Below, in pieces: positions 5,223 to 37,800 of a DNA stretch of 38,972 nucleotides. Below the pieces are notes generated by a model that worked only from the letters and a program-made list of their open reading frames with translations, made no database searches and was not told where the DNA came from. The stretch lies in the NCBI GenBank assembly GCA_030696505.1, contig JAUYSD010000199.1, positions 1-38,972 on the forward strand, given 5' to 3'. A program made the position numbers and the translations under genes. The stretch's first letter is position 1, and each line of letters starts with the position of its first letter. The stretch is from Sulfuritalea sp. GTDB lineage: Bacteria; Pseudomonadota; Gammaproteobacteria; Burkholderiales; Rhodocyclaceae.

Positions 5223-6089
5223 ATGAACAGTTGCCAGCGCGTTCTGCTGCAAACAGATTTCGACCGCTTTGCCAGGCTGAGCGGCGACGACAATCCGATC
5301 CATTGCGATCCGGCGTTCGCCGCGAAGAGCCATTTCGGCGCGACCGTTGCCCACGGCATGCTGCTCTACAGTTGCATTTGCAAGGCGTTGACGGAACAGG
5401 TCGGCCCCGGCACGGTGCAAACGGAGCAGACACTGATGTTTCCCAATCCGACCTATGCCGGCGACCGGCTGCGCATCGATCTGCAGGTCGAGGCGGAAAG
5501 GGAAGGCCTGCTCGACATCCTGACCGAGGTCACGAAAGTTGGCGCTGGCGATACGGCGCTTGCGACCGCGTCGGGTCGCTGCCGGGTCGTCGCGCCGGGT
5601 GCTCCGCTGCCGGCGGTTGCTCCGGGCGTATTCAAGGCGGAGCCGGGCGATGCCGAACTCCATGGCCTGCGCCCCGGCATGATCGCCAGCAGTACGCGCA
5701 CTTTCAATGACGCCGACCTCGACGAATACGGCGACCTCAGCGGTGACCGCAACCCGATTTTCCGCGACGACGCCGCAGCGCGCGCGCGGGGCTTCAACGG
5801 TCGCATCGTGCCCTGGCCGCTGCTGGCTGGCATGTTCTCCGACCTGCTCGGCACGCGCCTGCCGGGACGCGGTACCGGCTGGATGAAGCAGGCTTTGCGC
5901 TATCCCTCGATCGCCTATCCCGGCGAGGTGCTGACGGCCACGGTTGCGATCACGCGCCTGCGTGCGGACAAAGAGCTGGTCAATCTGGCGACCCGGGTCG
6001 CCACCGCGGACGGCCGCGTGGTCTGCGACGGCGAGGCGCTGGTGCTGGTCAGGAATCTTGAAAACAAATCCGGACCGAAATCCGCATGA
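5223..6089 (+). CDS. MaoC-like double hotdog dehydratase/hydratase family protein
   Basis: This 288-aa protein has two hotdog halves, the arrangement of eukaryote-type hydratase 2 and of MaoC fusions that add or remove water on acyl-CoA. The N-terminal half keeps the hydratase-2 signature in SGDDNPIHCDPAFA (about residues 18-31), with Asp and His present, followed by GATVAHGML. The C-terminal half has SGDRNPIFRDD, where the histidine is replaced by Phe, so only one half is likely to be catalytic. The ATG at 5223 follows the ligase stop by 7 bp; an in-frame ATG at 5202 is possible. The stop overlaps the next start (ATGA). Dispersed repeat copy 1 (5537-5559) lies inside and encodes VGAGDTA in a region that looks like a loop. 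Confidence 0.85.
   Translation: MNSCQRVLLQTDFDRFARLSGDDNPIHCDPAFAAKSHFGATVAHGMLLYSCICKALTEQVGPGTVQTEQTLMFPNPTYAGDRLRIDLQVEAEREGLLDILTEVTKVGAGDTALATASGRCRVVAPGAPLPAVAPGVFKAEPGDAELHGLRPGMIASSTRTFNDADLDEYGDLSGDRNPIFRDDAAARARGFNGRIVPWPLLAGMFSDLLGTRLPGRGTGWMKQALRYPSIAYPGEVLTATVAITRLRADKELVNLATRVATADGRVVCDGEALVLVRNLENKSGPKSA
5537..5559 (+). repeat. Dispersed repeat, copy 1
   Basis: The core AGTTGGCGCTG is exact, and the tail reads GCGATACGGCGC. The copy lies inside the MaoC-like gene in the sense orientation, read as V-G-A-G-D-T-A. It belongs to a seven-copy family in this window. Confidence 0.75.
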
Positions 6090-7141
6090 GCGACATTGGC
6101 ATACTCGGCTACGGCCTCTATCTGCCGGCGCAGCACATGAGCGCCGCCGACATCGCCGCGGCGACCGAGGGCCGCTGGTCGGCCGCCGCGGTGCGCGACA
6201 AGCTGGGCATCGTGAAGAAGACCGTTCCCGGCAGCGAGGACGGCACCCAGGAGATGGGCGCCCGCGCGGCGCTCGACGCCCTGGCACGCTGCGGCCTCGA
6301 TCCCATGGAAATCGACCTGATCCTGTGCATCGGCGAGGAGTGGAAGGAGTACCCGCTGACCACCTCGGCGATCCACATCCAGGAACGTATCGGTGCCTGC
6401 CGCGCCTGGGGCATCGATCTGCAGCAGCGCTGCAACACCACGCTGGCGGCGATCAAGATCGCCAAGGACATGATGACTGCCGATCCGGACATCGCGACGG
6501 TGCTGATCGTCGGCGGCTACCGCAACGGCGACCTGATCGACTACACCGATCCCGATGTTTCCTTCATGTACGACCTGGCGGCGGCGGGCGGCGCGCTGAT
6601 CCTGCGGCGTGGCCTGGGCCGCAACGTCGTGCTCGGCAGCCATATCATCACCGACGGTTCGTTTTCGCGCGACACCGGCGTGCGCTATGGCGGCACCGTG
6701 CAGCCGATCGAGTCGCTGCCGCAGGAGACCCTGAACGAACTGCGCCTGCGCGGCAACCGCAGCCTTGGCGTGTTCGACGCCGAACACATGAAGGCGGGCC
6801 TCAACGAGGTTTCCATGCCCAACTGGCTGACCTGCATCGATCGGGCACTGGAAAAAAGCGGGGCGACGCGCGCCGACATCGATTTTCTGAACGTGCTGCA
6901 CTTCAAGCGCTCGATGCACGGCGGCTTGCTGGAAACCCTCGGCCTTGCGCCCGAGCAATCGGTGTATCTGGAAGACTACGGCCATGCCGGGCAGGTGGAC
7001 TTCATGGTTTCCCTGCATGAGGGATTGCAGCAGGGGCGCCTGAAGGAGGGCGATCTGATGGTCGCCATCGCCGCCGGGATCGGCTACGTCTGGGGCGCGA
7101 CCGTGGTGCGCTGGGGAGCGGCCGAGCTCAGCTGTCGTTGA
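6086..7141 (+). CDS. Ketoacyl synthase III / HMG-CoA synthase-like protein
   Basis: This 351-aa protein has the thiolase-fold layout of KAS III and HMG-CoA synthase enzymes, which form or break C-C bonds next to a thioester. The candidate active-site cysteine is C116 in DLQQRCNTTL, at the position of the nucleophile in this family. H272 (VLHFKR) corresponds to the first catalytic histidine. The position normally held by Asn in KAS III (GNxG) reads GHAG, with H300. The altered triad suggests a reaction other than fatty acid initiation, such as condensation, thiolysis or retro-Claisen cleavage in the operon's pathway; this is inference. The start overlaps the MaoC-like stop. The 3' end overlaps the convergent GGDEF-EAL gene by 14 bp, leaving no room for an intergenic terminator. 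Confidence 0.82.
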   Translation: MSDIGILGYGLYLPAQHMSAADIAAATEGRWSAAAVRDKLGIVKKTVPGSEDGTQEMGARAALDALARCGLDPMEIDLILCIGEEWKEYPLTTSAIHIQERIGACRAWGIDLQQRCNTTLAAIKIAKDMMTADPDIATVLIVGGYRNGDLIDYTDPDVSFMYDLAAAGGALILRRGLGRNVVLGSHIITDGSFSRDTGVRYGGTVQPIESLPQETLNELRLRGNRSLGVFDAEHMKAGLNEVSMPNWLTCIDRALEKSGATRADIDFLNVLHFKRSMHGGLLETLGLAPEQSVYLEDYGHAGQVDFMVSLHEGLQQGRLKEGDLMVAIAAGIGYVWGATVVRWGAAELSCR

Positions 7142-8438
7142 AGCCGAAGCGCTCCACGAATTGTTGCGGTTCGAGCGCCGGCCCTTTGAAATCGGCCTGC
7201 ATGTAGTCGCAGCCGAGTTCCTTGAGCCGGGCCGCCGCTGCCTCGTCGGCGACACCGACGGCCACCACGTCCAGCCGCAGGAGGTGGGCCATGGCGATCA
7301 TCGACTGCAGGATATGCTCGGACTTCGGTGTGCCGGCCAGATCGCCTGCCGCCGAAACGTCGATCCTGATTTCCTGAAACGGCATGCCGGAAAGTCCAAA
7401 CAGCGATGATATGGTCATGCCCGGATCGTCGATCGAGAGCTTCACGCCGAGCTCCTTCAGTCGGCCGAGCGTCTCCCGCGTAATCGCTTCTTCGGCCAGT
7501 ACCGATGTCTCCCCGATTCCCAGAATCAGCGTACCCGGTCGCCTGCTCCAGGTGCCCAGCGCACGCTGCACCACCTCCAGCAGTTCCGTATGTCGCAGCG
7601 CGCGGGCCGGCAGCTTGATCCCGATGCGCAAGTCCAGTCCTGCGCTGTAACGGAATTCCGATACGTTGCGCAGCGCACGATTGAGGATCGAGGAAACCAG
7701 ATCGGCGACCTTGTCCGCCGCGTCCGCCGCGGCGAAGGCCTGCTCCGCATCGATCATGCCCAGCGCAGGATCGCCCCAGCGCAGCAGGCCTTCGGCACCC
7801 ATGACCTGACCGCGGCGCAGATCGTACTGGGGCTGAAACACCAGTTCGAGAGCGTCCTCGGAAACAGCCGTGCGCAGGCGGTTCTCATAAAGGAGCTTCG
7901 ACGCCGCCGAGTTGTCGCGGTCGTCGGCGTGGTCGGCGACCCGGCCCGGCAGCTCCCGGGCGCGGGTGCAGGCGCTCTTGGCTTTCTGCAAGAGGGTTTC
8001 CGCCTGATCGCCGTGCTCCGGATACATTGCGATCCCGATCGCCGGGTTGGCGTAGATTTCCTCCTCACCGATCCAGAACGGCATATCCAGCGCGCGCAAC
8101 AGTTTCTTCGTCGCCAGCAGCGCCACGGCAGGCCCCTCGACGGTCGACAGGACGCAGGCAAAATCGTCCCGGCCCAATGCGCCAACCAGATCGTCCGGTC
8201 GCAGCACGTCGATACGCAGGGAGGCGGCAACGCGGTTGCGCACAGCATCGCCGATCTGGTAACCCCACACCGCGTCGATGCGGCTTATCACGCCGCAGTC
8301 GATGACCAGCACCGCCAGAATTCCGCCGTCAGACTGTCTGTCCTCGACTATCCTGCGCAGCGCCTCCAGAACCCCGCTTGTTCCGGCAACCGAGTGGTTA
8401 TCCGCCGCTGGGGGCTCTGCGGAGCCTTCCTCGCTCAC
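7128..8438 (-). CDS. Degenerate GGDEF-EAL domain protein
   Basis: This 436-aa protein has the order of a diguanylate cyclase plus c-di-GMP phosphodiesterase, but both active sites look broken. The GGDEF site reads GRDDF (89-93), and the upstream DxxxxN element ends in Asp. In the EAL half, EAL is EGL (216-218), the metal-binding Asn of the family NLS motif is Lys (GIKLP, 273-277), the ExT/E element reads GIGET, and the catalytic VAEGVE motif reads VAVGVA (392-397). A c-di-GMP-binding or protein-interaction role is more likely than turnover. The start is a GTG overlapping the stop of the HD-GYP gene (GTGA), so the two are translationally coupled. An open frame continues upstream but only as an antisense-like shadow of that gene. 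Confidence 0.87.
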   Translation of the reverse strand: MSEEGSAEPPAADNHSVAGTSGVLEALRRIVEDRQSDGGILAVLVIDCGVISRIDAVWGYQIGDAVRNRVAASLRIDVLRPDDLVGALGRDDFACVLSTVEGPAVALLATKKLLRALDMPFWIGEEEIYANPAIGIAMYPEHGDQAETLLQKAKSACTRARELPGRVADHADDRDNSAASKLLYENRLRTAVSEDALELVFQPQYDLRRGQVMGAEGLLRWGDPALGMIDAEQAFAAADAADKVADLVSSILNRALRNVSEFRYSAGLDLRIGIKLPARALRHTELLEVVQRALGTWSRRPGTLILGIGETSVLAEEAITRETLGRLKELGVKLSIDDPGMTISSLFGLSGMPFQEIRIDVSAAGDLAGTPKSEHILQSMIAMAHLLRLDVVAVGVADEAAAARLKELGCDYMQADFKGPALEPQQFVERFGFNDS

Positions 8439-9631: not shown

Positions 9632-9639
9632 ACGGCTAA

Positions 9640-16550: not shown

Positions 16551-17315
16551 ATGATGCCGGGTGCTGCGGTGTTGCGTGAGAATCTTCGCGCCTATCTGGA
16601 TGGTCTGCTGGATGCCGCGAGCTTTCGCGATTATTGCCCAAACGGCCTGCAAGTGGAAGGCTGTGAGCGCGTGCAGCGCATCGTCTGCGGCGTTACGGCC
16701 AGCCAGGCGCTGATCGAGGCCGCGATCGAACGCGGCGCCGATACGCTGCTGGTGCATCACGGCTGGTTCTGGAAAGCCGAGGATGGTCGCGTCACCGGCT
16801 TCCGCCGGCAGCGCATGGCGCGGCTTTTGGCGCACGACATCAACCTGTTCGCCTACCATTTGCCGCTCGATGCCCACGCCACGCTGGGCAACAACGCGCA
16901 ATTGGCAACGCGCCTGGGCTGGACCGTCAGCGGCCGCTTCGGCGAACAGGACATCGGCTTCATCGGCGTGCCGTCAGCGCCAACTCTTGCCGCCGAACTG
17001 GCGCGGCAGATCGAGCGGGCGCTGGGCCGCGCACCGTTGCTGATCGGCGATCCGGGGCGCAAGCTGGCGCGCATTGCCTGGTGCAGCGGAGGCGCCCAGG
17101 GCTATTTCGAGGCAGCGCTGGCCGCTGGCGCCGACGTCTTCATCTCGGGCGAGATCTCCGAGCAGACCGTTCATCTGGCGCGCGAAACCGGCATGGCCTA
17201 TATCGCCGCCGGCCACCATGCGACCGAGCGCTACGGCGCGATGGCGCTGGGTGCGCATCTGGCGGAAAAATTCGGCATCGATTGCGAGTTTGTCGATATC
17301 GACAACCCGGTCTGA
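16551..17315 (+). CDS. Nif3-like dinuclear metal centre hexameric protein (YbgI/DUF34 family)
   Basis: This 254-aa protein belongs to the Nif3/YbgI family, which forms hexameric rings with a dinuclear metal site and has been linked to GTP cyclohydrolase-like or hydrolase activities; its real role is unsettled. Metal-binding residues are visible as H69/H70 (LVHHGWFW), D107 (HLPLDAH) and the C-terminal GHHATERYG. The length matches bacterial members. A very purine-rich ribosome site (GGGGGGGGTGA) lies just upstream of two tandem ATGs. Dispersed repeat copy 2 (16963-16985) falls inside in antisense orientation, encoding PSAPT in the central linker. The DegS-like and Nif3-like pairing is common in beta- and gammaproteobacteria. 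Confidence 0.9.
16963..16985 (-). repeat. Dispersed repeat, copy 2
   Basis: The core AGTTGGCGCTG is exact on the minus strand, and the tail ACGGCACGCCGA has three mismatches to the consensus. The copy lies inside the Nif3-like gene, read as V-P-S-A-P-T-L in the gene's frame. Confidence 0.65.
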
Positions 17316-18027: not shown

Positions 18028-19176
18028 ATGAAAATTCTTTCCTTCCTGCTGATTCTGCTGACCGCCGCCGCCCCCCTGCGTGCAGCGACCTTGCCCGACG
18101 CGGCGCGATTCACCGTTGCCATTGAAAACGGCGACCTGTCCGCTGCGCGCGAATGGCTGGATGCAGGCCTGGTGCCGGATTTCGAGGGCCGGGTGATCGG
18201 CAGCGGCCTGATGATCGCGGCCTGGGAAGGCAATGTCCCGATGATGGAACTGTTCGTCTCGCGCGGCGCCGACATCAACAAGGTCAATGCCATTGGCGAG
18301 CAGGCGCTGCAGCATGCAGCCTGGAAAGGGCATCTGGCGGCAGTGCGCTGGTTGGTCGAGCACGGCGCCAGCGTGAATCGCCCAGGCAAGGAATGGGCGG
18401 CCCTGCATTACGCCGTGTTTGCCGGCCATGCGGAGGTGGTGAGCTATCTGCTGGAGCAGGGTGCCGACATCAATGCGCTGTCCACCAACGGTTCGACGCC
18501 GCTGATGATGGCAGCGCGCGAAGGACAGGAGGCGATCGCGAAGCGCTTGCTGACTGCCGGCGCCCGCCGCGACATCGTCAACGAGTGGGGCGACGATGCG
18601 CTGCGCTGGGCGATGCGCCACAACAACCTGACGATAGCCCGTGAAATCGCCGGCGCCGAGGGTTTTCCCGCCGTCGCGGCACGGCCGACCGCATCCTGGG
18701 GCACCGCCGTGCGTTCGCAGGCCGTGCCCGATCGGGCCGACTCGCTGATGGCTCAGGCCCGCGGCATGGAGGCCGCCGGGCAGCGCGACGAGGCGCTGCG
18801 ACTCTACCGCGCGGCGCTGGCCGTGATTCGCCAGGCCGATGCGGCGAGGAAACCCGTTGCCGCACGGGGCCGCGCCGCGAGCGGAATGGTCATCACCGCG
18901 CGCCGTGACAAACCCGATTCCCAGTCGGCGGCGCTGAACTACGCCGCGCCGGCGAACCCCGGCGAATCGGCGCCGGTCCCGGGCGGCGCCAGCCCGGGAG
19001 TTGGCGCTGGCGGCACGGCGCCAACTCCCGGCGCGGGCGCCGACGACTGGTTGCGCCGCGCCCGCGAACTGGAAAGCGCCGGGCGCCGCAAGGAGGCGCT
19101 GCAAGCCTATCGCCAGGCCTCGGCCATCCTGCGCAGCCCGGCTCGGGTACCGGCGAATGCTCAGCCGACCCGCTGA
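18028..19176 (+). CDS. Secreted ankyrin-repeat protein
   Basis: This 382-aa protein begins with a clear signal peptide (MKILSFLLILLTAAAPLRA) and carries about four ankyrin repeats between residues 24 and 190, for example GEQALQHAAWKGHLAAVRWL and GSTPLMMAAREGQEAIAKRL. The C-terminal half has two similar short helical elements with the pattern ARxxExxGxRxEALxxYRxA (near 249 and 346), like half TPR units, joined by a Gly/Pro/Ala linker. Periplasmic ankyrin proteins mediate protein contacts; the partner is unknown. The start at 18028 is the only one giving a signal peptide. Dispersed repeat copy 3 and its inverted partner are embedded in the linker. It is divergent from the TonB-type gene. Confidence 0.85.
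   Translation: MKILSFLLILLTAAAPLRAATLPDAARFTVAIENGDLSAAREWLDAGLVPDFEGRVIGSGLMIAAWEGNVPMMELFVSRGADINKVNAIGEQALQHAAWKGHLAAVRWLVEHGASVNRPGKEWAALHYAVFAGHAEVVSYLLEQGADINALSTNGSTPLMMAAREGQEAIAKRLLTAGARRDIVNEWGDDALRWAMRHNNLTIAREIAGAEGFPAVAARPTASWGTAVRSQAVPDRADSLMAQARGMEAAGQRDEALRLYRAALAVIRQADAARKPVAARGRAASGMVITARRDKPDSQSAALNYAAPANPGESAPVPGGASPGVGAGGTAPTPGAGADDWLRRARELESAGRRKEALQAYRQASAILRSPARVPANAQPTR
18994..19031. repeat. Dispersed repeat copy 3 within a 14-bp-arm inverted repeat
   Basis: The repeat core AGTTGGCGCTG starts at 18999, with tail GCGGCACGGCGC. An opposing half-site follows, so CCGGGAGTTGGCGC (18994-19007) and GCGCCAACTCCCGG (19018-19031) form perfect arms around a 10-base loop. It lies in the coding region for the low-complexity linker of the ankyrin protein. 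Confidence 0.8.
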
Positions 19177-20279: not shown

Positions 20280-21968
20280 ATGCTGAAGACCTACAACTAC
20301 CCGAAGTTCGAGTACCGCCGGCCCCCTGAAATCGCCAGCGGCAAAACGCTGAAAGTGCCGGTGGTGGTGGTCGGCGCCGGTCCGGTCGGGCTGGCCGCCG
20401 CGCTCGACCTGCAACAGCAGGACCTGCCGGTGCTGCTGCTGGACGAAGACGACACGGTCTCGATCGGTTCGCGCGGCGTCTGCTACGCCAAGCGCGCGCT
20501 GGAAATCCTCGATCGCTACGGCGTCGGCGATGCGGTCTGCGCCAAGGGCGTGTCGTGGAATGTCGGGCGCACCTTCTTCCGCGAGGAGGAGGTGTACAAC
20601 TTCAACCTGGTTCCCGAGCCGGATCACCATCGCCCGGGCATGGTGAACCTGCAGCAGTACTACCTTGAAGAGTACCTGGCGGCAAGTGCCGCGGCGCGGC
20701 CGGAGATCGAGCTGCGCTGGAAGAACAAGGTGGTTTCGGTGGCACAGGGCGACAGGACCGTCACGCTCAAGGTGGAAACCGAGGATGGTTTCTACACGGT
20801 CGAAACCGACTGGCTGATCGCCGCCGACGGCGCACGCAGCCCGATACGCCGCATGCTCAGCCTCGAAGTCGAGGGCAAGATCTTCATGGACCGCTTCCTC
20901 ATCGCCGACGTCGTGATGAAGGCCGAATTCCCCTCCGAGCGTTGGTTCTGGTTCGATCCGCCCTTCCATCCGGGGCAGTCGGTGTTGCTGCATCGGCAGA
21001 CCGACAGCGTCTATCGCATCGACTTTCAACTGGGCTGGGACGCCGATCCGGAACAGGCGAAGAAGCCGGAGAACGTGCTGCCGCGGATCAAGGCCATGCT
21101 CGGCGCACTGGACGGAAAAGAACGGGAGTTCGAGCTGGAATGGGTCAGCGTCTATACTTTCCAGTGCCGCCGCATGGGACGCTTCAACCACGGCAATGTG
21201 CTCTTCATCGGCGATGCCGCGCATCAGGTCTCGCCCTTCGGCGCGCGCGGCGCCAACTCCGGTCTGCAGGACGCCGACAACCTGGGCTGGAAGCTGAAGC
21301 TGGTCATGGCTGGTTTGGCGCCCGCGGCACTGCTCGACAGCTATTCGGAGGAGCGCATCTACGCCGCCGACGAGAACCTGTTGAACTCGACGCGTTCGAC
21401 CGATTTCATCACGCCCAAGAGCAAGGTCAGCCGGACTTTCCGCAATGCCGTGCTGGGTCTGGCGAAAGATCACGCTTTCGGCCGCGCCCTGGTCAATTCC
21501 GGGCGGCTTTCGGTGCCGGCCTTTCTTACGGCATCCAGCCTCAATACGCCGGACGGCGCGGGCGACAGCTTTGCCGGCCGCATGGTGCCCGGAGCGCCGA
21601 TGGACGATGCGCCGGTGGTGGAAAACGGTAAGGCTGGCTGGCTGCACAACAAGGTCGGCCACAGCTTCGTCGCGCTGTATTTTGCGCAGGATGCCGCCGT
21701 GTTGCCAGCGCCAACTCTTGCCGCGCTGTCGAATCTTTCATGGCAAGGGATCGAGGTGCGGCCTCTGGTGATTTCGGCCGGCCCCGGCCTGCTTGCCGGC
21801 GATATTCCTGTCCTCGAAGATGCGCGCGGCGTCGCCGCCCGGCGCTACGACGCGCAGCCGGGTACGGTGTATCTGCTGCGTCCCGACCAGCACGTCGCCG
21901 CGCGCTGGCGCTCGTTCGGTGCCGACAAAGTCCGCGCCGCGGTCGCCAGGGCGACCTGCAACATATGA
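20280..21968 (+). CDS. FAD-dependent aromatic hydroxylase (class A flavoprotein monooxygenase)
   Basis: This NAD(P)H-dependent enzyme probably adds a hydroxyl group to an aromatic ring. The 562-aa protein shows the FAD-binding VVGAGPVGLAAALDL (about residues 31-45), the DG motif LIAADGARSPIRR (near 180) and the GD motif FIGDAAHQVSPFGARGANSG (near 310). The C-terminal 110 residues form the thioredoxin-like domain seen in phenol hydroxylase and MhpA-type enzymes, ending with YLLRPDQHVAARW. The substrate is not evident; a monohydroxylated aromatic acid leading to a para-dihydroxy compound would fit the downstream genes. Dispersed repeat copy 4 (21694-21716) encodes LPAPT between the main and C-terminal domains. 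Confidence 0.88.
   Translation: MLKTYNYPKFEYRRPPEIASGKTLKVPVVVVGAGPVGLAAALDLQQQDLPVLLLDEDDTVSIGSRGVCYAKRALEILDRYGVGDAVCAKGVSWNVGRTFFREEEVYNFNLVPEPDHHRPGMVNLQQYYLEEYLAASAAARPEIELRWKNKVVSVAQGDRTVTLKVETEDGFYTVETDWLIAADGARSPIRRMLSLEVEGKIFMDRFLIADVVMKAEFPSERWFWFDPPFHPGQSVLLHRQTDSVYRIDFQLGWDADPEQAKKPENVLPRIKAMLGALDGKEREFELEWVSVYTFQCRRMGRFNHGNVLFIGDAAHQVSPFGARGANSGLQDADNLGWKLKLVMAGLAPAALLDSYSEERIYAADENLLNSTRSTDFITPKSKVSRTFRNAVLGLAKDHAFGRALVNSGRLSVPAFLTASSLNTPDGAGDSFAGRMVPGAPMDDAPVVENGKAGWLHNKVGHSFVALYFAQDAAVLPAPTLAALSNLSWQGIEVRPLVISAGPGLLAGDIPVLEDARGVAARRYDAQPGTVYLLRPDQHVAARWRSFGADKVRAAVARATCNI
21694..21716 (-). repeat. Dispersed repeat, copy 4
   Basis: The core AGTTGGCGCTG is exact on the minus strand, with tail GCAACACGGCGG. 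It is read in the hydroxylase gene as V-L-P-A-P-T-L. Beyond the repeat itself, copies 2, 4 and 5 share CAAG immediately 5' of AGTT. Confidence 0.75.
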
Positions 21969-25092: not shown

Positions 25093-25201
25093 CGAATTGG
25101 GCGGCGCTATAGTGCTGTCATTCTAGGCTCAGCGACGGACACTTGCTTCGCCTGAGCAGGCGAGCGCAAACCCCTTAAATTGCATTTTTTGCAGGATGGC
25201 C

Positions 25202-25849
25202 ATGAAGCTCCATAACTATTTTCGCAGCTCCGCCAGCTTTCGCGTGCGCATTGCGCTGGCCTTGAAGCAGCTTGATTACGAGTATGTGTCGGTCCATCTG
25301 CTGCAGGGCGGGGGACAGCAGTTCGCGGCGGCGTTCAAGGCGATCAACCCTGCGGCACTGGTACCGGTGCTCGAAGAAGACGATGGCACGGTCCTCACCC
25401 AGTCGCTGGCCATAATCGAATACCTCGACGAGACCAGGCCGCAGCCCGCGCTGCTGCCGCCCGATGCGGTCGGGCGGGCGCGAGTGCGGGCACTGGCGCT
25501 GGCGATCGCCTGCGAGATCCATCCGCTCAACAATCTGCGCGTGCTGGCGTATTTGAGCAAGACGCTGGGCGTGACAGAAGCGCAGCGCAACGCCTGGTAC
25601 TGCCACTGGGTGGAAACCGGGCTGGCCACGGTCGAGGCCATGCTCGCGGGCGATACGCGCACCGGCGCCTGCTGCCATGGCGATACCCCGACCCTGGCCG
25701 ACATCTGCCTGGTGCCGCAGATATTCAATGCGCAGCGCTTCAAGGCGAAACTGGATCATGTGCCGACGGTGATGCGGATTCACCAACACTGCCTGACGCT
25801 GCCGGCCTTCGCCACGTCCGTGCCGGCTATGCAGCCGGATGCGGAGTAG
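25202..25849 (+). CDS. maiA: Maleylacetoacetate (or maleylpyruvate) isomerase, zeta-class GST
   Basis: This glutathione-dependent cis-trans isomerase converts maleylacetoacetate to fumarylacetoacetate (or the pyruvate analogues). The 215-aa protein begins YFRSSASFRVRIAL, carrying the zeta-class SSxSxRVR motif with the catalytic serine, followed by NPAALVPVLE and the GST C-terminal domain ending with LPAFATSVPAMQPD. I prefer the ATG at 25202 because AGGA lies 5-6 bases upstream; an ATG at 25196 is also possible. Function fits the FAH gene 1.4 kb upstream, from which it is separated by the inverted FimV-like gene. Dispersed repeat copy 5 follows directly after the stop. Confidence 0.9.
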   Translation: MKLHNYFRSSASFRVRIALALKQLDYEYVSVHLLQGGGQQFAAAFKAINPAALVPVLEEDDGTVLTQSLAIIEYLDETRPQPALLPPDAVGRARVRALALAIACEIHPLNNLRVLAYLSKTLGVTEAQRNAWYCHWVETGLATVEAMLAGDTRTGACCHGDTPTLADICLVPQIFNAQRFKAKLDHVPTVMRIHQHCLTLPAFATSVPAMQPDAE

Positions 25850-25854
25850 GCAAG

Positions 25855-25877
25855 AGTTGGCGCTGGCGTCACGGCGG
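25855..25877 (+). repeat. Dispersed repeat, copy 5 (intergenic)
   Basis: Core AGTTGGCGCTG and tail GCGTCACGGCGG, five bases after the maiA stop. It is a perfect match to the consensus and is preceded by CAAG. Confidence 0.8.
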
Positions 25878-25960
25878 CGCCGACCCGCCGGATTCCAGGG
25901 CACGGCTTCATTCGCTTCGGGTATGCTGTAGCCATTTACGCAAGGACGGAGCCGTACTAC

Positions 25961-26614
25961 ATGCAGGACCACCGCCACACTCCGTTCGTCCTCATCGTCG
26001 AGGATCACCCGTTGGTCGCCGATTCGCTGCTCGCCTGTGTCCGCGACTGCGATGCCGGTCTGGAGGTGGAGACCGCAGAATCGCTGCGCGCCGGGTTGCG
26101 CATTCTGGCGCAGCGGCCGGTGCCCCTGCTGATCGTCACCGACCTGACGCTGACCGATACGCAGGGCACGGAAGCTGTCAGGAGCTTGCGCGCGGCGGCT
26201 CCGCAAAGCCCCTTGCTGGTGTTCACGGCGCAGGCCGATCCGCTGCTGCGCAGCGAGGCGCAGGAATTGGGAGCGATTGGTTACCTGATCAAGAATACGT
26301 CGATCCAGATTCTTCGCGACGCAATTCGGGCCGTCATCGGCGGCCATCGAAGCAAAAGACGCGTTGCCCAGGAACGCACCGGCACGCTGAGCCGTCTGTT
26401 GACGCCCAAGCAGCTCCTGGTACTCGAAGAATTGGCGGCGGGTCGCAGCAACAAGGAAATCGCCGCGCGGCTCGCCATCAGCGATGAAACCGTGAATTCC
26501 CACATGAAGGAAATTCTCGGCCGGCTTGCGGTCAGGAATCGTACCGAGGCGGTGGTCCGCTACCTTCAGATCGGCAGCCAGGCCAATGCCGGCCATCCAG
26601 AGCAGCCGGCATGA
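25961..26614 (+). CDS. LuxR/NarL-family response regulator
   Basis: This 217-aa DNA-binding response regulator has a receiver domain with acidic pocket E14/D15, phospho-acceptor D61 (VTDLTL) and conserved K111 (LIKN), and a C-terminal LuxR-type helix-turn-helix (about 148-208), with LTPKQLLVLEELAAGRSNKEIA. It is coupled to the histidine kinase gene by ATGA (26611-26614). The targets are unknown; the inverted repeat in front of the Sel1 gene at 28679-28696 is a candidate operator. It has its own leader of about 80 bp after repeat copy 5. Confidence 0.92.
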   Translation: MQDHRHTPFVLIVEDHPLVADSLLACVRDCDAGLEVETAESLRAGLRILAQRPVPLLIVTDLTLTDTQGTEAVRSLRAAAPQSPLLVFTAQADPLLRSEAQELGAIGYLIKNTSIQILRDAIRAVIGGHRSKRRVAQERTGTLSRLLTPKQLLVLEELAAGRSNKEIAARLAISDETVNSHMKEILGRLAVRNRTEAVVRYLQIGSQANAGHPEQPA

Positions 26615-28560
26615 AACTCCGGGGCTTTGGCGTGCTGGTGGCGTGCTGCGTCGGATGGCTTGCCGTCGTGGTGCAAGCCGCGACGCCGACGCCGGTCGAA
26701 ATCCCGGCCGATGCCGAGCGCGTGCCGGTATGGCAGACGCTGCAGATCGTGGCGCCGGCCGATCCGCGGTTGGCGCCTGATCAAGCGGCAGAACTGGCGG
26801 CCGGCAGCGAGGGGAAACTCATCGACAGTCCGAACCGGATTGTCGGGCGTGGTACCCGTCCCTACTGGGCCTTGTTCTCCTTGCATAATCCGCAAGCGTC
26901 CGAGCAGCTGCGCCTGCTGGCGGTGGAGAGCACCACTCAGTTCAGCATGCGTCTGTACGAGCGCAGCAACGCGGGCACATGGCACCAGGTCGGGTCGATT
27001 GCCGACGCCGCAGCGGGGCGTATCGGCGGTGGGACCATGTACCCGGTCTGGACGCTGCAACTGGCGCCGCACCGGACCACCGACTTGTTGCTGCGGATCG
27101 AGGGGCCGGCCATCGTTCGATTTCCGGTGTTTGCCTATCACCCGGTAAGTTTCGCCGAACGGGAACGCAAGCTTCACCTTGCAGTCGGCATCGCGCTGGG
27201 GCTTTGCCTCTTCGTCGTCATCTATATCGGTTCGCTGCGGCGATATCTCGATGACGCGACGGTGCCCCTGTTTATCGGCATGATTGTTGCGGATCTGGTG
27301 GGGGCGCTGTGGATGTCCGGTTTTCTCAGCGAGCTGCTTCCCGCGCTGCCGGAGAGCACGCTCAGTGCTCTGGGCTGTGCGGCCTATGCCAGCTTGCTGG
27401 GCTGTGGTTGCCTGCATGCCCGCATCTACCTGAATTGTTCTGCATGGGTGCCGCGGGCCGATTTTCTGTTGCACTTGTTGGGCTGGCTCTGGCTGGCGTT
27501 GGCGCCCCTGTTTTCACTGGCGTTTCCCGTCGCCGCCCGGGTTCTGCTGGTGTGGGGCGGGACGGCGGTCGCCTTGTTGCTGGTCTTGATTTCCGTGCTG
27601 GCCGCGCGTCGCAGAATTCCGTTCTCGGGATTCATCGCCGCCGCCTGGGCCGGCTATCTTGCCGCCGGCTCGGTTTTTCTGGTCGCGCGAGTGGCCGACA
27701 ATCCCCTGCTGTGGTCATCGAGCGCTCTGGTCCTGTTGCAGGCCTCGGTCGTCGCGGTGCTGTTTGGCCTGGCCATGAGCCAGCGCCTGATTCGCCTGCG
27801 AGGCGTGCTGGTGGCGGAACGTCAGGAAGCCAGGATGCAGCGCGAGAAGGCTACCGAACTGATGCGCGAGCGCAGCCTGCTGTTTGCGGCGACCAATCAT
27901 GATCTGCGGCAGCCGTTGCTGGGTGTCAGCCTGTTTGCCGATCTGCTGAAGTCGGCACGCTCGCCGCAGGAGCGCGAGGAGCACGCGTTGAAGCTCAACA
28001 TGGCGCTGAAGGAGGTCGACGAACTTCTGGTCGGCATCCAGCAACTGGCGGCCGTGCATGAAGCGTCGCACCGCCCGGTATTCGAGACGGTCAAACTCGA
28101 CGACCTGCTGGCGCCGATCATCGAGGAATACCGTGGGCGCTCCGAGTACAAGCGCATCACCATCCGCCATGTTCCGTCGCGCTTGTCGCTCACCACTCAC
28201 GTGCCTTATTTCCAGCGCATCGTCAGGAATGTACTGTCCAACGCCATCCGCTACACCGAACAGGGCGACCGGGTCCTGGTCGGCTGCCGCCGCGGCGGTG
28301 GCTTGCGCCTGGTGATTGCGGACAGCGGCCGCGGTATGAGCGATGAGCAGACCCGGCGCGCCTTCGACGCGTTTCAGCGCTTCGACGCCGAGATGTCGAT
28401 TCCGGACGGCTTCGGCCTCGGCCTGTTCAGCACCAAGAGCCTGGCCAATGCGCTGGGCCTGACGGTCAGCCTGCACAGCCACGAGGGACGTGGTACCGAA
28501 TTCAGAATCTTCATGGCGCCGCCTGCGGGATGTGGAGTCGCTGAAACCGCGCCAGCCTGA
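26611..28560 (+). CDS. Hybrid-free sensor histidine kinase with 7TMR-DISM-like sensor module
   Basis: This 649-aa kinase has a signal-like leader (1-23), a periplasmic beta-rich domain to about residue 185, seven predicted membrane segments (about 190-395) in the 7TMR-DISM manner, a short coiled region (REKATELMRER), HisKA with the phospho-acceptor H430 (ATNHDLRQPL) and an HATPase domain with N-box NVLSNAIRYT, G1 IADSGRGMS and G2 GFGLGLFS. It should phosphorylate the coupled response regulator. 7TMR-DISM sensors are thought to bind carbohydrates or other small ligands; the ligand here is unknown. The final 15 residues after the ATPase domain are unstructured. Confidence 0.9.
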   Translation: MKLRGFGVLVACCVGWLAVVVQAATPTPVEIPADAERVPVWQTLQIVAPADPRLAPDQAAELAAGSEGKLIDSPNRIVGRGTRPYWALFSLHNPQASEQLRLLAVESTTQFSMRLYERSNAGTWHQVGSIADAAAGRIGGGTMYPVWTLQLAPHRTTDLLLRIEGPAIVRFPVFAYHPVSFAERERKLHLAVGIALGLCLFVVIYIGSLRRYLDDATVPLFIGMIVADLVGALWMSGFLSELLPALPESTLSALGCAAYASLLGCGCLHARIYLNCSAWVPRADFLLHLLGWLWLALAPLFSLAFPVAARVLLVWGGTAVALLLVLISVLAARRRIPFSGFIAAAWAGYLAAGSVFLVARVADNPLLWSSSALVLLQASVVAVLFGLAMSQRLIRLRGVLVAERQEARMQREKATELMRERSLLFAATNHDLRQPLLGVSLFADLLKSARSPQEREEHALKLNMALKEVDELLVGIQQLAAVHEASHRPVFETVKLDDLLAPIIEEYRGRSEYKRITIRHVPSRLSLTTHVPYFQRIVRNVLSNAIRYTEQGDRVLVGCRRGGGLRLVIADSGRGMSDEQTRRAFDAFQRFDAEMSIPDGFGLGLFSTKSLANALGLTVSLHSHEGRGTEFRIFMAPPAGCGVAETAPA

Positions 28561-28678
28561 ACCTGCTTGGGCGTTCATCGCCGCGGTGGATTCGGCATTG
28601 CGGATGAGCGGGTCCATCGTTGCTCCGGTCTCTCAGCGTGCATTTTCGCCTCGGCTTCTTTCCTCAATTCCCCAATAA

Positions 28679-28696
28679 CCCTACCCGATATAGGGG
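28679..28696. promoter_or_regulatory. Inverted repeat, candidate regulator site
   Basis: CCCTA and TAGGG flank a 7-base spacer in the 241-bp gap between the kinase and Sel1 genes, about 105 bases before the Sel1 start. Its size and symmetry suit a dimeric LuxR-type regulator. The rest of the gap shows no conserved gene. Confidence 0.35.
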
Positions 28697-28801
28697 ATGC
28701 GGACGGTCGCGGATTGCCCTATCTTGCACTTGGCGAATCGCAATCCTGCCTGCCAATGCTGCTCGCGCCGCTGTGGCTGAACAATTCCTGGGGGGAATGA
28801 A

Positions 28802-29179
28802 ATGACAACAAGGTGTTTGAGGAAAACGCTGGCAATTCTCGTCGCACTGGCCGCGACTGTGATGGCAATTCCGGCCATGGCCTCCGGCGAGCCGGAACTG
28901 GAATTGGCGCTGGGAGACGCAGCCGACTATCGATATGCTTCGGCGCTTTCCCATTTCAGGCTGTCCGCCGCCGCAGGAAATGTTCAAGCCCAACGAAGCC
29001 TGGGCTTGATGCTCCTGAAAGGCGAGGCACTTTATGGCAACGAGATAAGGGGAAACCGTGTCGAAGCCGTCAAGTGGCTGTCGCTCGCCGCCTCCAATGG
29101 CTGCGGGGTGTCGAAATATGTGCTGGCGCGATTGAACAACGGCCGCGAGTCACTCGGTACTCTGGTTTCGATCCGGTAG
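28802..29179 (+). CDS. Small secreted Sel1-repeat protein
   Basis: This 125-aa protein has a signal peptide (residues 1 to about 28, ending AMAS) and one to two Sel1-like helical repeats: YASALSHFRLSAAAGNVQAQRSLGLML and the second unit NRVEAVKWLSLAASNGCGVSKYVLAR. Sel1 repeats serve as protein-binding scaffolds. The start follows CTGGGGGGAATGAA, a strong ribosome site. It lies after a two-component system and ends with a clear rho-independent terminator, so it is probably a monocistronic transcript and a candidate target of that system. Confidence 0.82.
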   Translation: MTTRCLRKTLAILVALAATVMAIPAMASGEPELELALGDAADYRYASALSHFRLSAAAGNVQAQRSLGLMLLKGEALYGNEIRGNRVEAVKWLSLAASNGCGVSKYVLARLNNGRESLGTLVSIR

Positions 29180-29200
29180 TACATCAACTCTCCTCCTTTT

Positions 29201-29228
29201 AGGGGCGCCGATAGCGCCCCCTTTTTTT
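29201..29228 (+). terminator. Rho-independent terminator after the Sel1 gene
   Basis: Stem arms GGGGCGC (29202-29208) and GCGCCCC (29214-29220) enclose the loop CGATA and are followed by seven T. The preceding CTCCTCCTTTT gives no comparable reverse U-tract of the same strength, so it mainly serves the + strand. Confidence 0.85.
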
Positions 29229-29291
29229 GACATGGCGAGAATTCATGCGCCGCGAGCCATGTTCCTTGCAACCCGTATGGAGGTAGATCGA

Positions 29292-29876
29292 ATGTCTCTC
29301 GAAAAATTGATGCGTTTGGTGGGTGCTGCCGTTCTCTCTCTTGCTTGCGGCTTGGCTCAGGCGGATTCGTGGGACTCGGTGCCGCAGAAAAAGACCACTA
29401 TCCTGAAGCTTTACATGCAGCCGAAGCATGTCCTCGAACGGATGAGCGGAAGCGAGGCGGGCAAGACGCTGTTCGTCGACGTGCGCACTCCGCAGGAGGC
29501 GATGTTCGTCGGCATGCCGCAACTCGCGGACGCCAACGTGCCCTACATGGTTTTGCCTGAACTGCCTGAATGGGACGGCGCCAGGAACGCCTTCAAACTG
29601 GTACAGAACAGCGGTTTTGTCGGCGACGTCAAATCGCGTCTTGCCGCCAAGGGCCTCGGTATCGACGATGTTGTGATCCTGATGTGCCGGTCCGGAGACC
29701 GCAGTGCGGGGGCGGCCAACCTGCTGGCCAAGGCCGGCTTTACTCGTGTCTACAGCGTCGTCGATGGCTTCGAAGGAGACCTCGGCAAGGACGGCCGGAG
29801 GATGCTCAGCGGCTGGAAGAATGAAGGCCTGCCCTGGTCATTCGATCTGGCCAGGGAAAAAATGTCCAGTCTTTGA
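29292..29876 (+). CDS. Periplasmic rhodanese-like protein
   Basis: This 194-aa protein has a signal peptide (residues 1-24, cleavage near AQA) and a rhodanese domain with FVDVRTPQEAMF and the active-site loop CRSGDRS (C132-S138). It may transfer sulfur or bind redox-active small molecules in the periplasm. The start was set at 29292, after TGGAGGT, rather than at the upstream in-frame ATG at 29232, because only the former leaves a signal peptide at the N-terminus. It ends 118 bp before the next small gene. Secreted rhodaneses are often near respiratory or quinoprotein genes; none are visible here. Confidence 0.85.
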   Translation: MSLEKLMRLVGAAVLSLACGLAQADSWDSVPQKKTTILKLYMQPKHVLERMSGSEAGKTLFVDVRTPQEAMFVGMPQLADANVPYMVLPELPEWDGARNAFKLVQNSGFVGDVKSRLAAKGLGIDDVVILMCRSGDRSAGAANLLAKAGFTRVYSVVDGFEGDLGKDGRRMLSGWKNEGLPWSFDLAREKMSSL

Positions 29877-29993
29877 ACCCAACCGATCGGGGAAGCGTGT
29901 CCGAGCCACCGATGGCTTGTCATGCGCGGCGCCCATGGCTCTCGGGATATTGAATGGTGCCGGTACAACTCAAAGGAAGGATCAATTGAGGCT

Positions 29994-30176
29994 ATGAGCA
30001 ATGCAGTGGAACGATTGGCCGTCCAGTTGATGAAGCTGTCCAACGATGAATGGGCGCGAGCCACGGAACGTTGGATCGCCGGCCAGGATTGGAATGGAGT
30101 ATTCGGGCCGGCGTGGGACGAGATTTCGGAGCAACTTACCGAAATCGACCGGGAGGCTTTTGACCGGCTTCGATGA
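29994..30176 (+). CDS. Small hypothetical protein
   Basis: This 60-aa acidic protein (begins MSNAVERLAVQLMKLSNDEW and ends REAFDRLR) has helical character, no signal and no recognisable motif. A GAGG precedes the ATG by 3 bases, and GGAAGG lies 15 bases upstream. An in-frame upstream ATG at 29922 would give an unlikely leader. It is on the same strand as the rhodanese gene, with no terminator between them, and ends 9 bp before the convergent msrA stop. Confidence 0.5.
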   Translation: MSNAVERLAVQLMKLSNDEWARATERWIAGQDWNGVFGPAWDEISEQLTEIDREAFDRLR

Positions 30177-30185
30177 GCCCGGTAC

Positions 30186-30731
30186 TTACTGGAATCCGGT
30201 CTTGAGCCGTCCGGCGAACACTTTGCGCAGCTTGGCCGCTTTGGGTGCGACGACTGCCTGGCAATATCCCTGCTGCGGATTGTTGGCGTAGTAGTTCTGG
30301 TGATAATCCTCGGCCGGCCAGAAAGTTGGCGCTGGCGACACGGCGGTGACTATGGGCGCGGGCCAGATCTTCGCGGCCGCGAGTTCCGCGATCAATTCCC
30401 TGGCGACTTTTTCCTGTTGTTCGTCGTGGGTGAAGATCACCGAGCGGTACTGGCTGCCGACATCGTTGCCCTGGCGGTTGGGCGTGGTCGGATCGTGAAT
30501 CGCGAAGAAGGCCTTCAGCAAGCTGCCGTAGTCGATGACCTCAGGATTGAAGCGTACTTCGACGACTTCGGCGTGGTCGGTGTCGCCGCCGCATACGCTG
30601 CGGTAGTCCGGATTGGGCATGCCGCCGCCGGCATAGCCCGAGACCACCGACTCGACTCCGGCAAGTTGCACGAAGGCGGCTTCGAGGCACCAGAAGCAGC
30701 CGCCGCCCAGAGTTGCGATTTCAGTCGTCAT
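30186..30731 (-). CDS. msrA: Peptide methionine-S-sulfoxide reductase A
   Basis: This enzyme reduces methionine-S-sulfoxide in oxidised proteins. The 181-aa product begins with GGGCFWCLEA, placing the catalytic C12 and C15. Further family motifs are YAGG, the DHAEVV region, NDVGSQYRS and the WPAEDYHQNY segment. The C-terminus keeps another cysteine (GYCQAVV) for resolving. Dispersed repeat copy 6 (30324-30346) encodes VSPAPT immediately before FWPAEDYHQ, where ordinary MsrA has a short variable loop. It is cotranscribed with the downstream methyltransferase (ATGA overlap at 30728-30731). Confidence 0.95.
   Translation of the reverse strand: MTTEIATLGGGCFWCLEAAFVQLAGVESVVSGYAGGGMPNPDYRSVCGGDTDHAEVVEVRFNPEVIDYGSLLKAFFAIHDPTTPNRQGNDVGSQYRSVIFTHDEQQEKVARELIAELAAAKIWPAPIVTAVSPAPTFWPAEDYHQNYYANNPQQGYCQAVVAPKAAKLRKVFAGRLKTGFQ
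30324..30346 (+). repeat. Dispersed repeat, copy 6
   Basis: Core AGTTGGCGCTG and tail GCGACACGGCGG, a full consensus match, inside msrA (antisense to the gene). It is read as V-S-P-A-P-T-F. Confidence 0.78.
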
Positions 30732-33932: not shown

Positions 33933-33948
33933 CGGCGGGGCTCCGGGA

Positions 33949-34841: not shown

Positions 34842-34861
34842 CAAATGGTATCAAATTAATT

Positions 34862-34891
34862 ATGACACAGTTGAGGCCTGCAGGGTACAAT
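34862..34891 (+). promoter_or_regulatory. Candidate sigma70 promoter of flavodoxin and paaN
   Basis: ATGACA (34862-34867, one mismatch to TTGACA) and TACAAT (34886-34891) are 18 bases apart. Transcription would begin near 34898, close to a 7-bp-stem hairpin in the leader. Confidence 0.5.
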
Positions 34892-34910
34892 AAAAATGTA
34901 TCACGTCACC

Positions 34911-34929
34911 ATCCCCGCGCAACGGGGAT
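34911..34929 (+). promoter_or_regulatory. 5' leader hairpin of the flavodoxin transcript
   Basis: ATCCCCG and CGGGGAT form a perfect 7-bp stem around CGCAA, immediately before the TAGAGGAAA ribosome site. It may stabilise or regulate the leader; it lacks a T-run, so it is not a terminator. Confidence 0.4.
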
Positions 34930-34946
34930 ATAGAGGAAACGCCATC

Positions 34947-35396
34947 ATGGCCAAGATACTGATCATCGTCGGCACCGAGTCGGGCAACGCCCAGATGTGC
35001 GCCGACCATCTGTCGGACAATCTGCCCGCGCTCGGCCATGAAGTCGAGGTGGCGGGCGACGCCGATGCCGGCAGCGCCGAACTCGATGGCCGCGACGTGG
35101 TGCTGGTGTGCACCGCCACCCACGGCGACGGCGAACTGCCCGACAACATCATTCCGCTGGCCGAACGCCTGCGCGCCGAGGCGCCCGATCTTTCCCATCT
35201 GCGCTATGGCGTGATCGCGCTCGGTGACCAGACCTACAAGGCGACCTTCTGCCAGGCGGGCAAGGACATGGACGCGCTGTTCGCCCGCTGCGGTGCGCGC
35301 AAGGTCGGCGAGCGGCTCGAAATCGATGCCTGCACCCAGCCGCTGCCCGACGAAGAGGCGCTGAACTGGGCCCAGGAATGGGTCACGATGCTCTGA
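34947..35396 (+). CDS. Flavodoxin (MioC-like)
   Basis: This 149-aa FMN-binding electron carrier has the phosphate loop GTESGNAQ (residues 9-16), the FMN-contact region ATHGDGELPDN (60s) and the segment GVIALGDQTYKATFCQAGK. It is shorter and more MioC-like than long-chain flavodoxins. The ATG at 34947 follows AGAGGAAA; an upstream ATG at 34896 would add an unlikely leader. It is the first gene of the rightward unit and faces the PaaA-like gene. A role as electron donor to the ring-oxidising step is possible but unproven. Confidence 0.88.
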   Translation: MAKILIIVGTESGNAQMCADHLSDNLPALGHEVEVAGDADAGSAELDGRDVVLVCTATHGDGELPDNIIPLAERLRAEAPDLSHLRYGVIALGDQTYKATFCQAGKDMDALFARCGARKVGERLEIDACTQPLPDEEALNWAQEWVTML

Positions 35397-35458
35397 GCCC
35401 CGATCTTGCCTTGATGCAAGCCAATATAAAAAAGTAGCCCTTCCCCCGGAGAACCAAA

Positions 35459-37117: not shown

Positions 37118-37156
37118 TCGGCGTTCAGTGACGAGTCAGGAACGGAGCGCGACGGA

Positions 37157-37762
37157 ATGAAAGTTTACGAGATCGACGGCATCGTGCCGGTGGTTGACCC
37201 GACCGCCTTCGTGCATCCGTCGGCGGTGTTGATCGGCGATGTGGTGGTCGGACCGCGGGCCTACATCGGGCCCTGCGCCAGCCTGCGCGGCGACTTCGGC
37301 CGCCTGTTCATCGGCGCCGGCGCCAACGTGCAGGACTGCTGCGTGATGCACGGCTTTCCGGGCAGCGACACCATCGTCGAGGAAAACGGCCATATCGGCC
37401 ACGGCGCGATCCTGCACGGCTGCATCGTGCGCAGCAACGGCATGGTCGGCATGAATGCGGTGGTCATGGACAACGCCGTGGTCGGCGAATCGGCGATTGT
37501 CGCGGCGCAGAGTTTCGTCAAGGCCGGCATGGAAATCCCGCCGCGCATGCTGGCCGCCGGCGTGCCGGCCAAGGTGATGCGCGAACTGACCGAGCTGGAA
37601 ATGGCCTGGAAAATCGAAGGCACGAGCGTCTATCACGATCTGGTCAGGCGCTGCCACGGCACGTTGCGCGAGGTCGAGGCCCTGACCGCCGTCGAGCCGG
37701 ATCGCAGGCGGCTCAAGCTGCCCGAACTGAAGACCCTGCAGGAAACCCGGCGCGGCGGTTAG
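37157..37762 (+). CDS. paaY: PaaY-like gamma-carbonic-anhydrase-fold protein (hexapeptide repeats)
   Basis: This 201-aa left-handed beta-helix protein is like PaaY, a thioesterase-like protein that clears toxic CoA adducts in phenylacetate breakdown, and like gamma-carbonic anhydrases. Hexapeptide repeats run from about residue 15 to 150, with metal-binding His candidates in [22 protein letters not shown]-terminal helix follows ([27 protein letters not shown]). It is the last gene of the rightward unit and ends 39 bp before the convergent glycerol kinase. Dispersed repeat copy 7 fills most of that gap. Confidence 0.9.
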
Positions 37763-37777
37763 CCACTAGTGATCGAG

Positions 37778-37800
37778 AGTTGGCGCTGGCGTTACGGCGG
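37778..37800 (+). repeat. Dispersed repeat, copy 7 (intergenic)
   Basis: Core AGTTGGCGCTG and tail GCGTTACGGCGG, a full consensus match. It fills the gap between the convergent paaY and glpK genes and ends on the base before the glpK stop codon. Confidence 0.8.

What the first reader, a model, noticed from the sequence alone, without database searches (positions are those of the whole stretch)
5537..37800. A seven-copy dispersed repeat (AGTTGGCGCTG core) in genes and gaps
I read the exact 11-mer AGTTGGCGCTG followed by a tail GCGNYACGGCGG at 5537 (+), 16963-16985 (-), 18999 (+), 21694-21716 (-), 25855 (+), 30324 (+) and 37778 (+). An 11-mer is expected far less than once in this window on either strand. 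Copies differ mainly at two tail bases. Two copies are intergenic, directly after stop codons; five are inside unrelated genes. This looks like a genomic signal or mobile-style repeat family, comparable in manner to DNA-uptake sequences or REP elements, but its sequence fits none I know.
Basis: seen in the sequence. Interest (0 to 1): 0.85.

Follow-up and report, generated by a model that had tools for sequence, protein, structure and literature searches.

The report
Dialect-bearing genome-wide DNA signal motif
A 26-letter DNA word is scattered hundreds of times through the genomes of Sulfuritalea and some related bacteria, changes spelling between lineages, and looks like the tags that a few other bacteria use to recognise their own kind's DNA when they take it up, although uptake has not been tested here.

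Summary
The 11-mer occurs 7 times in the window (shuffle mean 0.01) and 455 times in the 4.45-Mb genome, against 12 for the reversed control. It is the core of a 25-27 bp motif, CAAG-AGT[T/C]GGCGCTGGCG-NN-ACGGCG. The genus is Sulfuritalea, Rhodocyclaceae (inferred). Of its 31 genomes, 3 are enriched in the AGTT spelling and 27 in AGTC. Five of 67 other genera sampled also carry AGTC, one with another tail. Outside the family, 14 of 291 genomes hold 1-4 copies. Between two species the diagnostic C becomes T at 22 of 33 sites, against 11 of 461 control words. Coding copies look substituted, not inserted. Best reading: a DNA uptake signal with dialects, working like DUS or USS but unrelated in sequence. 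Uptake is not shown. No receptor was found (one candidate rejected), and ComEC and PilQ do not separate carriers from non-carriers. A chromosomal DNA-binding protein is the main rival.

The parts
4481..4506 (-). C-spelled copy (AGTCGGCGCTGGCGAAACGG), inside an AMP-binding acyl-CoA ligase-like gene (3686-5215 +)
   Evidence: encoded residues align gap-free with PDB 8weu
5533..5558 (+). T-spelled copy inside a MaoC-like dehydratase gene (5202-6089 +)
16964..16989 (-). T-spelled copy inside a DUF34/NIF3 gene (16569-17315 +)
   Evidence: encoded residues align gap-free with E. coli YbgI, PDB 1nmo (a 2-residue gap lies a few residues upstream)
18995..19020 (+). T-spelled copy inside an ankyrin-repeat protein gene (18028-19176 +), followed by a partial inverted copy (GGCGCCAACT)
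   Evidence: T-spelled at this place in G006 and G017 too
21695..21720 (-). T-spelled copy inside an FAD-binding monooxygenase-like gene (20280-21968 +); T-spelled in G006, C at the diagnostic base in G001 and G024, no motif in G017
   Evidence: (output cut, rows seen: G006, G024, G001)
25851..25876 (+). T-spelled copy just after the stop of a GST-like gene (25196-25849 +), at the left edge of a stretch that G006 and G017 lack here
25852..30194 (.). 4.3-kb stretch absent at this place in G006 and G017; holds a response-regulator-like ORF (recognised by eye) and a 7TMR-DISM histidine kinase; part of it has a 75% match elsewhere in G001
30320..30345 (+). T-spelled copy inside msrA (30186-30731 -); T-spelled in G006 and G017, C at the diagnostic base in 13 of 15 other congeners aligned (G023 has A, G026 is disrupted)
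   Evidence: gap-free against PDB 1nwa and 4gwb
37774..37799 (+). T-spelled copy between a hexapeptide-repeat gene (37157-37762 +) and a convergent FGGY kinase gene (37801-38925 -); interrupted by small hairpin inserts at this place in G017, G006 and G018

Best explanation
It is a DNA uptake signal sequence of the Sulfuritalea branch of Rhodocyclaceae, analogous to but not derived from DUS or USS. Inferred mechanism: an outer-surface DNA receptor, most likely a type IV minor pilin, prefers double-stranded DNA carrying this 25-27 bp word. The pilus and its secretin pull the DNA in, ComEC passes one strand, and recombination writes it into the chromosome. Chance mutations that improve a match are over-represented among imported alleles, so copies accumulate in place. 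When receptor specificity shifted by one base in the ancestor of G000, G006 and G017, the same drive rewrote most copies from AGTC to AGTT. Shown: genome-wide enrichment, dialects and a dialect switch, clade limits, presence of ComEC and PilQ, and, on a small number of sites, in-place origin. Inferred: uptake, receptor and drive.
For: The own genome has 455 copies against 12 for the control. T-spelled copies are enriched only in G000, G006 and G017 (3 of 31 in the genus; 3 of 395 in the family). C-spelled copies number 109-635 in 27 of the other 28 congeners. In the family sample 28 of 249 genomes, in 6 of 68 genera, have 85-635 C-spelled copies; the other 221 have at most 36. The motif is the top 11- and 12-mer in 400 kb of G001 and 329 kb of G017. 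In-gene counts are 23 against a synonymous-shuffle mean of 0.78 (maximum 3) in G017, and 36 against 1.38 (maximum 5) in G001, 60 shuffles each. Dialect switch: G001's C is T in G017 at 22 of 33 ungapped sites, against 11 of 461 ungapped GTCGGC words elsewhere, Fisher P 3e-22. In the commonest reading frame the switch GTC to GTT is silent. Strands are equal, and in G001 100 of 258 plus copies lie in the first 38% after dnaA, so there is no replichore bias. A third spelling...ACGGCAC, appears in G108: position 21 is A in 16 of 16 sites. ComEC is in 47 of 48 genomes and PilQ in 19 of 19. USS were likewise found not to be insertions (PMC1626085, passages), and DUS have dialects (PMC3630211, passages).
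Against: No uptake data exist. No receptor was found: the pilin operon tested does not track the motif, and ComEC and PilQ are also in motif-poor G026 and G269 and in non-carriers. Inverted motif pairs, common for DUS and USS, are rare: pairs under 150 bp number 0 among 51 sites in G017 and 1 among 74 in G001, though two close opposite-strand pairs are visible in the listed part of G006. Of 11 coding sites whose partner lacks the motif, only 5 keep exact length. Conservation above flanks is modest: motif positions other than the diagnostic one are 86% identical against 82% in flanks for G017 (34 sites), 82% against 80% for G026 (5 sites), and 76% against 78% for a mixed set of C-spelled congeners (3 sites). 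Some IMG/VR viral contigs carry the exact motif, not examined further. The motif is longer than the ca. 9-12 nt cited for uptake motifs.
Confidence: 0.65

Rival explanations
1. The motif is the binding site of an intracellular chromosomal protein (nucleoid organiser, occlusion or segregation factor), kept at hundreds of places by selection, whose specificity changed by a base in some lineages.
For: Long, sharp motif. Density of 11-26 per 100 kb in all carriers sampled. Spacing slightly more even than random in G017 (variance/mean 0.56, P 0.02), not significant in G001 (0.79, P 0.21).
Against: A site used at hundreds of places should resist change of specificity (inference), yet at least three spellings exist and one switch rewrote most shared sites. 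No strand or replichore bias. G026 has almost no sites in 339,552 bases and no clear replacement word, although its ComEC and PilQ remain.
Confidence: 0.2
2. A Chi- or KOPS-like polar recombination or translocation signal.
For: Dispersed, overrepresented, mostly in genes.
Against: No orientation bias: 223/232 in G000, 258/264 in G001, and plus copies not concentrated in one replichore. Far longer than Chi or KOPS (recalled).
Confidence: 0.04
3. A mobile or REP-type repeat copied into new places.
For: Strong consensus; small hairpin repeats do sit inside some copies; 6 of 11 coding empty sites differ in length.
Against: Residues encoded by the motif in msrA, NIF3 and the acyl-CoA ligase align gap-free with distant proteins. 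The length differences at empty sites (-19, -17, -6, -2, -1, +34) show no common insert size. Asymmetric consensus, most copies inside genes. Dialect rewriting at shared sites.
Confidence: 0.05
4. A by-product of codon usage or common peptides (VGAGxTA).
For: Preferred frames exist.
Against: Synonymous-codon shuffles give means of 0.08, 0.78 and 1.38 against 5, 23 and 36 in-gene copies. Intergenic sequence is enriched 2.7- to 3.3-fold over its share.
Confidence: 0.01
5. Another self-spreading process, such as a methylation or gene-conversion hotspot, maintains the word.
For: Would explain in-place spread and dialects without transformation (inference).
Against: No enzyme or precedent with a 25-27 bp asymmetric word was identified here; not tested.
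Confidence: 0.05

Closest known systems
DNA uptake sequence (DUS) of Neisseriaceae, ComP receptor
   Same: Very many copies, in genes and gaps, with lineage dialects (PMC3630211, passages).
   Different: Unrelated sequence; 25-27 bp instead of 10-12; inverted pairs rare in the two samples tested; different family; no receptor known; uptake not shown.
Uptake signal sequence (USS) of Pasteurellaceae
   Same: Motif extended beyond the core, copies that arose by substitution in place, two dialects named (PMC1626085 and PMC12616744, passages).
   Different: Unrelated GC-rich sequence with a second conserved block (ACGGCG) rather than AT tracts (AT tracts recalled).
HIP1 palindrome of cyanobacteria
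   Same: Highly iterated genomic word.
   Different: HIP1 is the 8-bp palindrome GCGATCGC (start of abstract of PMC4390886 seen); this is a long asymmetric word.

Membership tests
DNA uptake sequences (DUS/USS kind) | Hundreds of copies genome-wide, far above chance | tested here: met
   455 vs 12 control; 109-635 in 27 of 28 non-T congeners
DNA uptake sequences (DUS/USS kind) | Copies in both orientations without replichore bias | tested here: met
   replichore tested in G001 only, on the first 100 of 258 plus copies
DNA uptake sequences (DUS/USS kind) | Origin by substitution in place, not insertion | tested here: met
   gap-free protein alignments for 3 genes (a fourth, did not reach the motif); no consistent insert length, though only 5 of 11 coding empty sites have exactly equal length
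DNA uptake sequences (DUS/USS kind) | Lineage-specific dialects | tested here: met
   AGTT vs AGTC within the genus...ACGGCAC in G108
DNA uptake sequences (DUS/USS kind) | Type IV pilus secretin and ComEC present | tested here: met
   PilQ 19 of 19, ComEC 47 of 48; also present in non-carriers, so not discriminating
DNA uptake sequences (DUS/USS kind) | Inverted pairs at terminators (usual, not defining) | tested here: not met
   0 of 50 neighbour pairs in G017 and 1 of 73 in G001 lie within 150 bp; two close opposite-strand pairs are visible in the listed part of G006
DNA uptake sequences (DUS/USS kind) | A receptor that binds the word | tested here: inconclusive
   one pilin operon rejected as discriminator; no other candidate tested
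DNA uptake sequences (DUS/USS kind) | Preferential uptake of DNA that carries the word | not testable with these tools
   needs an uptake or transformation assay
REP / BIME repeats | Palindromic, extragenic | tested here: not met
   38 of 60 and 56 of 85 sites inside genes; asymmetric consensus
Chi / KOPS | Polar orientation relative to oriC | tested here: not met
Rfam RNA families | Match to a curated family | tested here: not met
   0 matches in the window at gathering score

The most novel reading that the evidence does not exclude
A third bacterial family has independently evolved a DNA uptake code: a 25-27 bp two-block word with at least three dialects in six genera, one dialect switch caught between related species, apparent losses (G026, G269), and small hairpin elements that insert at one fixed point inside the word.
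Probability: 0.6. Interest if true: 0.92.

Novelty: new variant of a known kind. Interest (0 to 1): 0.86.

Why it matters
[quoted passage not shown] An independent third case would show that uptake codes evolve repeatedly. It would allow the origin and change of self-recognition in bacterial sex to be studied in environmental bacteria. The single-base dialect switch between related species is a natural experiment for finding the receptor, since a specificity residue should differ between G000/G006/G017 and their neighbours.

Tried and rejected
A three-pilin operon as receptor (my own label 'MSHA-type', by eye; NCBIfam gave only general pilin matches, most below their cut-offs). It was seen in 9 of the 13 genomes whose pilin loci I read, with all three pilins in 8. 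A search of 249 family genomes with the MshO-like member (A1) matched 112, among them motif-poor G026 and G269 and many non-carriers, while carriers G153, G212, G075, G165, G227 and G247 are not among the matches at E 1e-10. Rejected as discriminator.

Loss of competence genes as the reason for motif loss: G026 and G269 keep ComEC and PilQ. Not supported.

A replacement word in G026: none as strong as the motif in carriers. The top 12-mer there, TCTGCGCCTCTG, has 9 copies and z 14.7, against z 39-56 for the motif in G017 and G001; I did not check whether it is a tandem repeat. Decay of orthologous sites in G026 could not be judged: only 5 G001 sites were covered, with motif positions 82% identical and flanks 80%.

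Other words in five non-carrier genera, 60 kb each: none stood out clearly, but the test is weak at this depth. In a 60-kb control stretch of G017 the motif itself was only second among 11-mers (z 9.1), and G111's CCAGGCGCTGG reached z 10.4.

GspH pilins as discriminator: found in 33 of 34 genomes, several paralogs, not informative.

Literature: no paper in the held library has 'DNA uptake sequence' with Rhodocyclaceae, or Sulfuritalea with 'natural transformation'. Letters of the motif occur in 28 papers; 15 were listed, seen by title and start of abstract, none about uptake or Rhodocyclaceae; 13 were not seen. Absence from print is claimed for these searches only. Other papers cited were seen as passages or in listings.

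Gene models come from my own ORF scorer, not a published gene finder. One search timed out with nothing printed and was repeated in a faster form.
Full report
What was checked. In the whole genome (G000, 4,446,726 bases, 398 contigs) there are 223 forward and 232 reverse copies against 7 and 5 of the reversed control. With up to one mismatch there are 1,041 against 272. Alignment of 37 copies shows sharp edges: the conserved block runs from about four bases before the 11-mer to ACGGCG, with two loosely conserved positions (+14, +15) inside it. Iterated weight matrices on 329 kb of G017 (60 sites) and 400 kb of G001 (85 sites) give the same word; in G001 an A after ACGGCG is also preferred.

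Whose genome. A pattern built on the msrA site returned 13 named stretches, all from metagenome-assembled genomes labelled Rhodocyclales, Rhodocyclaceae, Burkholderiaceae (one) or Sulfuritalea (two). That the genus is Sulfuritalea is inferred from this; the window's own record is not named.

Dialects. In the genus, T-spelled copies are enriched in 3 of 31 genomes: G000 455, G006 389, G017 486; the other 28 have at most 22. C-spelled copies (AGTCGGCGCTG) number 109-635 in 27 of those 28; G026 has 32 against 17 controls. The T genomes keep 99, 83 and 82 C-spelled copies against 16, 12 and 15 controls. In the family, T-spelled copies are enriched in the same 3 of 395 genomes. C-spelled copies are enriched in 28 of 249 genomes, in genera g1 (8 of 9), g8 (1 of 1), g19 (7 of 8), g38 (1 of 1), g46 (4 of 4) and g64 (7 of 7) of 68, with 85-635 copies; the remaining 221 genomes have at most 36. 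Outside the family, 14 of 291 order members hold 1-4 exact copies of GTCGGCGCTGGCGNNACGG, while G108 holds 161; that pattern would miss other spellings. Samples of the carrier genera give 11-26 sites per 100 kb. G108 has A at position 21 in 16 of 16 sites (ACGGCAC), its congener G153 has no clear preference there (A 10, G 7, T 4, C 2), and G037 has T at position 6 in at least half of 9 sites.

The switch. G017 and G001 were compared site by site. Of G001's 34 sites covered by G017 alignments, the diagnostic C is T in 22, C in 11 and a gap in 1. At 463 other GTCGGC words it is T in 11; Fisher P is 3e-22 on ungapped counts. Restricted to sites where the partner also has the motif, G017 has T at 19 of 24, and G001 has C at 19 of 19. 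Motif positions other than the diagnostic one are 86% identical against 82% in the flanks for G017 (34 sites). They are 96% against 82% for five sites found in the G000 loci, 89% against 80% for G003 (3 sites), 82% against 80% for G026 (5 sites) and 76% against 78% for a mixed set of C-spelled congeners (3 sites). In the commonest reading frame the word reads V-G-A-G-x-T-A, and the switch GTC to GTT is silent.

Not inserted. Through-alignments at coding sites whose partner lacks the motif number 11. Five keep the same length; the other six change by -19, -17, -6, -2, -1 and +34, with no class of 25-30 bp. In the window, four of the six in-gene copies were compared with solved proteins. In MsrA, NIF3 and the acyl-CoA ligase the residues encoded by the motif align without gaps to proteins of distant bacteria; the FAD-monooxygenase alignment did not reach the motif. 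A LysR-like gene (L014) shows the word at what I recognise as native spacing (by eye). This follows the reasoning used to show that USS are not insertions (PMC1626085, passages).

Placement. With my ORF models, 38 of 60 sites in G017 and 56 of 85 in G001 are inside genes. Sites above 20 bits are wholly intergenic at 15 of 51 (null 0.107, P 2e-4) and 24 of 74 (null 0.099, P 9e-8). Neighbour orientation looks random (29 of 50 and 38 of 73 alike), and pairs within 150 bp are rare (0 and 1), though two close opposite-strand pairs are visible in the listed part of G006. G001 contig 1 begins with dnaA and dnaN (recognised by eye). The first 100 plus-strand copies reach base 1,454,944, which is 38% of the contig, for 39% of the 258 plus copies, so there is no replichore bias. 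Synonymous-codon shuffles keep proteins and codon usage but give means of 0.077, 0.78 and 1.38 in-gene copies, where 5, 23 and 36 are observed.

Machinery. ComEC is found in 47 of 48 genomes (the exception, G007, is 79% complete), and PilQ above its cut-off in 19 of 19. Both are also in non-carriers and in the motif-poor G026 and G269, so they are permissive and not discriminating. A three-pilin operon first looked promising but does not follow the motif.

Reading. A long asymmetric word sits in genes and gaps without polarity, appears to arise in place, changes spelling by single bases along lineages, has most shared sites rewritten between two species, and is nearly gone from two genomes inside carrier genera. 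That combination is what uptake-biased recombination predicts, and much of it is described for DUS and USS (PMC3630211, PMC12616744 and PMC1626085, passages). A chromosomal DNA-binding protein would explain number and conservation, but not so easily the dialect turnover. Uptake, the receptor and the drive are inferred.

Limits. Named relatives are metagenome assemblies. Motif cut-offs and gene models are mine. The carrier genera other than Sulfuritalea are unnamed here. The detailed site comparison rests on one pair of genomes.

Noticed in passing
G017 contig 37 (L064-L080), G001 (L081-L103), L133: A small hairpin repeat (about 36 extra bases, core CCGCTTCGCGGGCAGG) sits at the same point inside several motif copies, after AGTYGGCGCTG and before ACGGCG, apparently in both orientations; it also occurs outside motifs, e.g. 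in L144 and the window near 16986 of the reverse strand.
   Followed up: partly
L031, L047, L049, L085, L090, L198, L210: A second, longer hairpin repeat (CTGATGAARCAACTGCGC..AAGGCGGTCGAGCAA..) also sits at that point of the motif in three genera (9 of 10 hits); six chosen copies fold to a common stem, 2 of 21 pairs compensated. The word may be a target site for small mobile elements.
   Followed up: partly
window 25852-30194: A 4.3-kb stretch with a 7TMR-DISM histidine kinase is absent at this place in G006 and G017 and starts at a motif copy that they lack; it may have come in with the word.
   Followed up: partly
   Followed up: no
G026 and G269: Two genomes inside carrier genera have few C-spelled copies (32 and 6) although ComEC and PilQ remain; they are natural loss cases for a receptor search.
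   Followed up: partly
G111 (L180-L182): In this non-carrier genome the word CCAGGCGCTGG is over-represented (12 against 0.85 in 60 kb, z 10.4) and two strong C-spelled motif sites were seen; it could be codon usage, a repeat or another signal.
   Followed up: no
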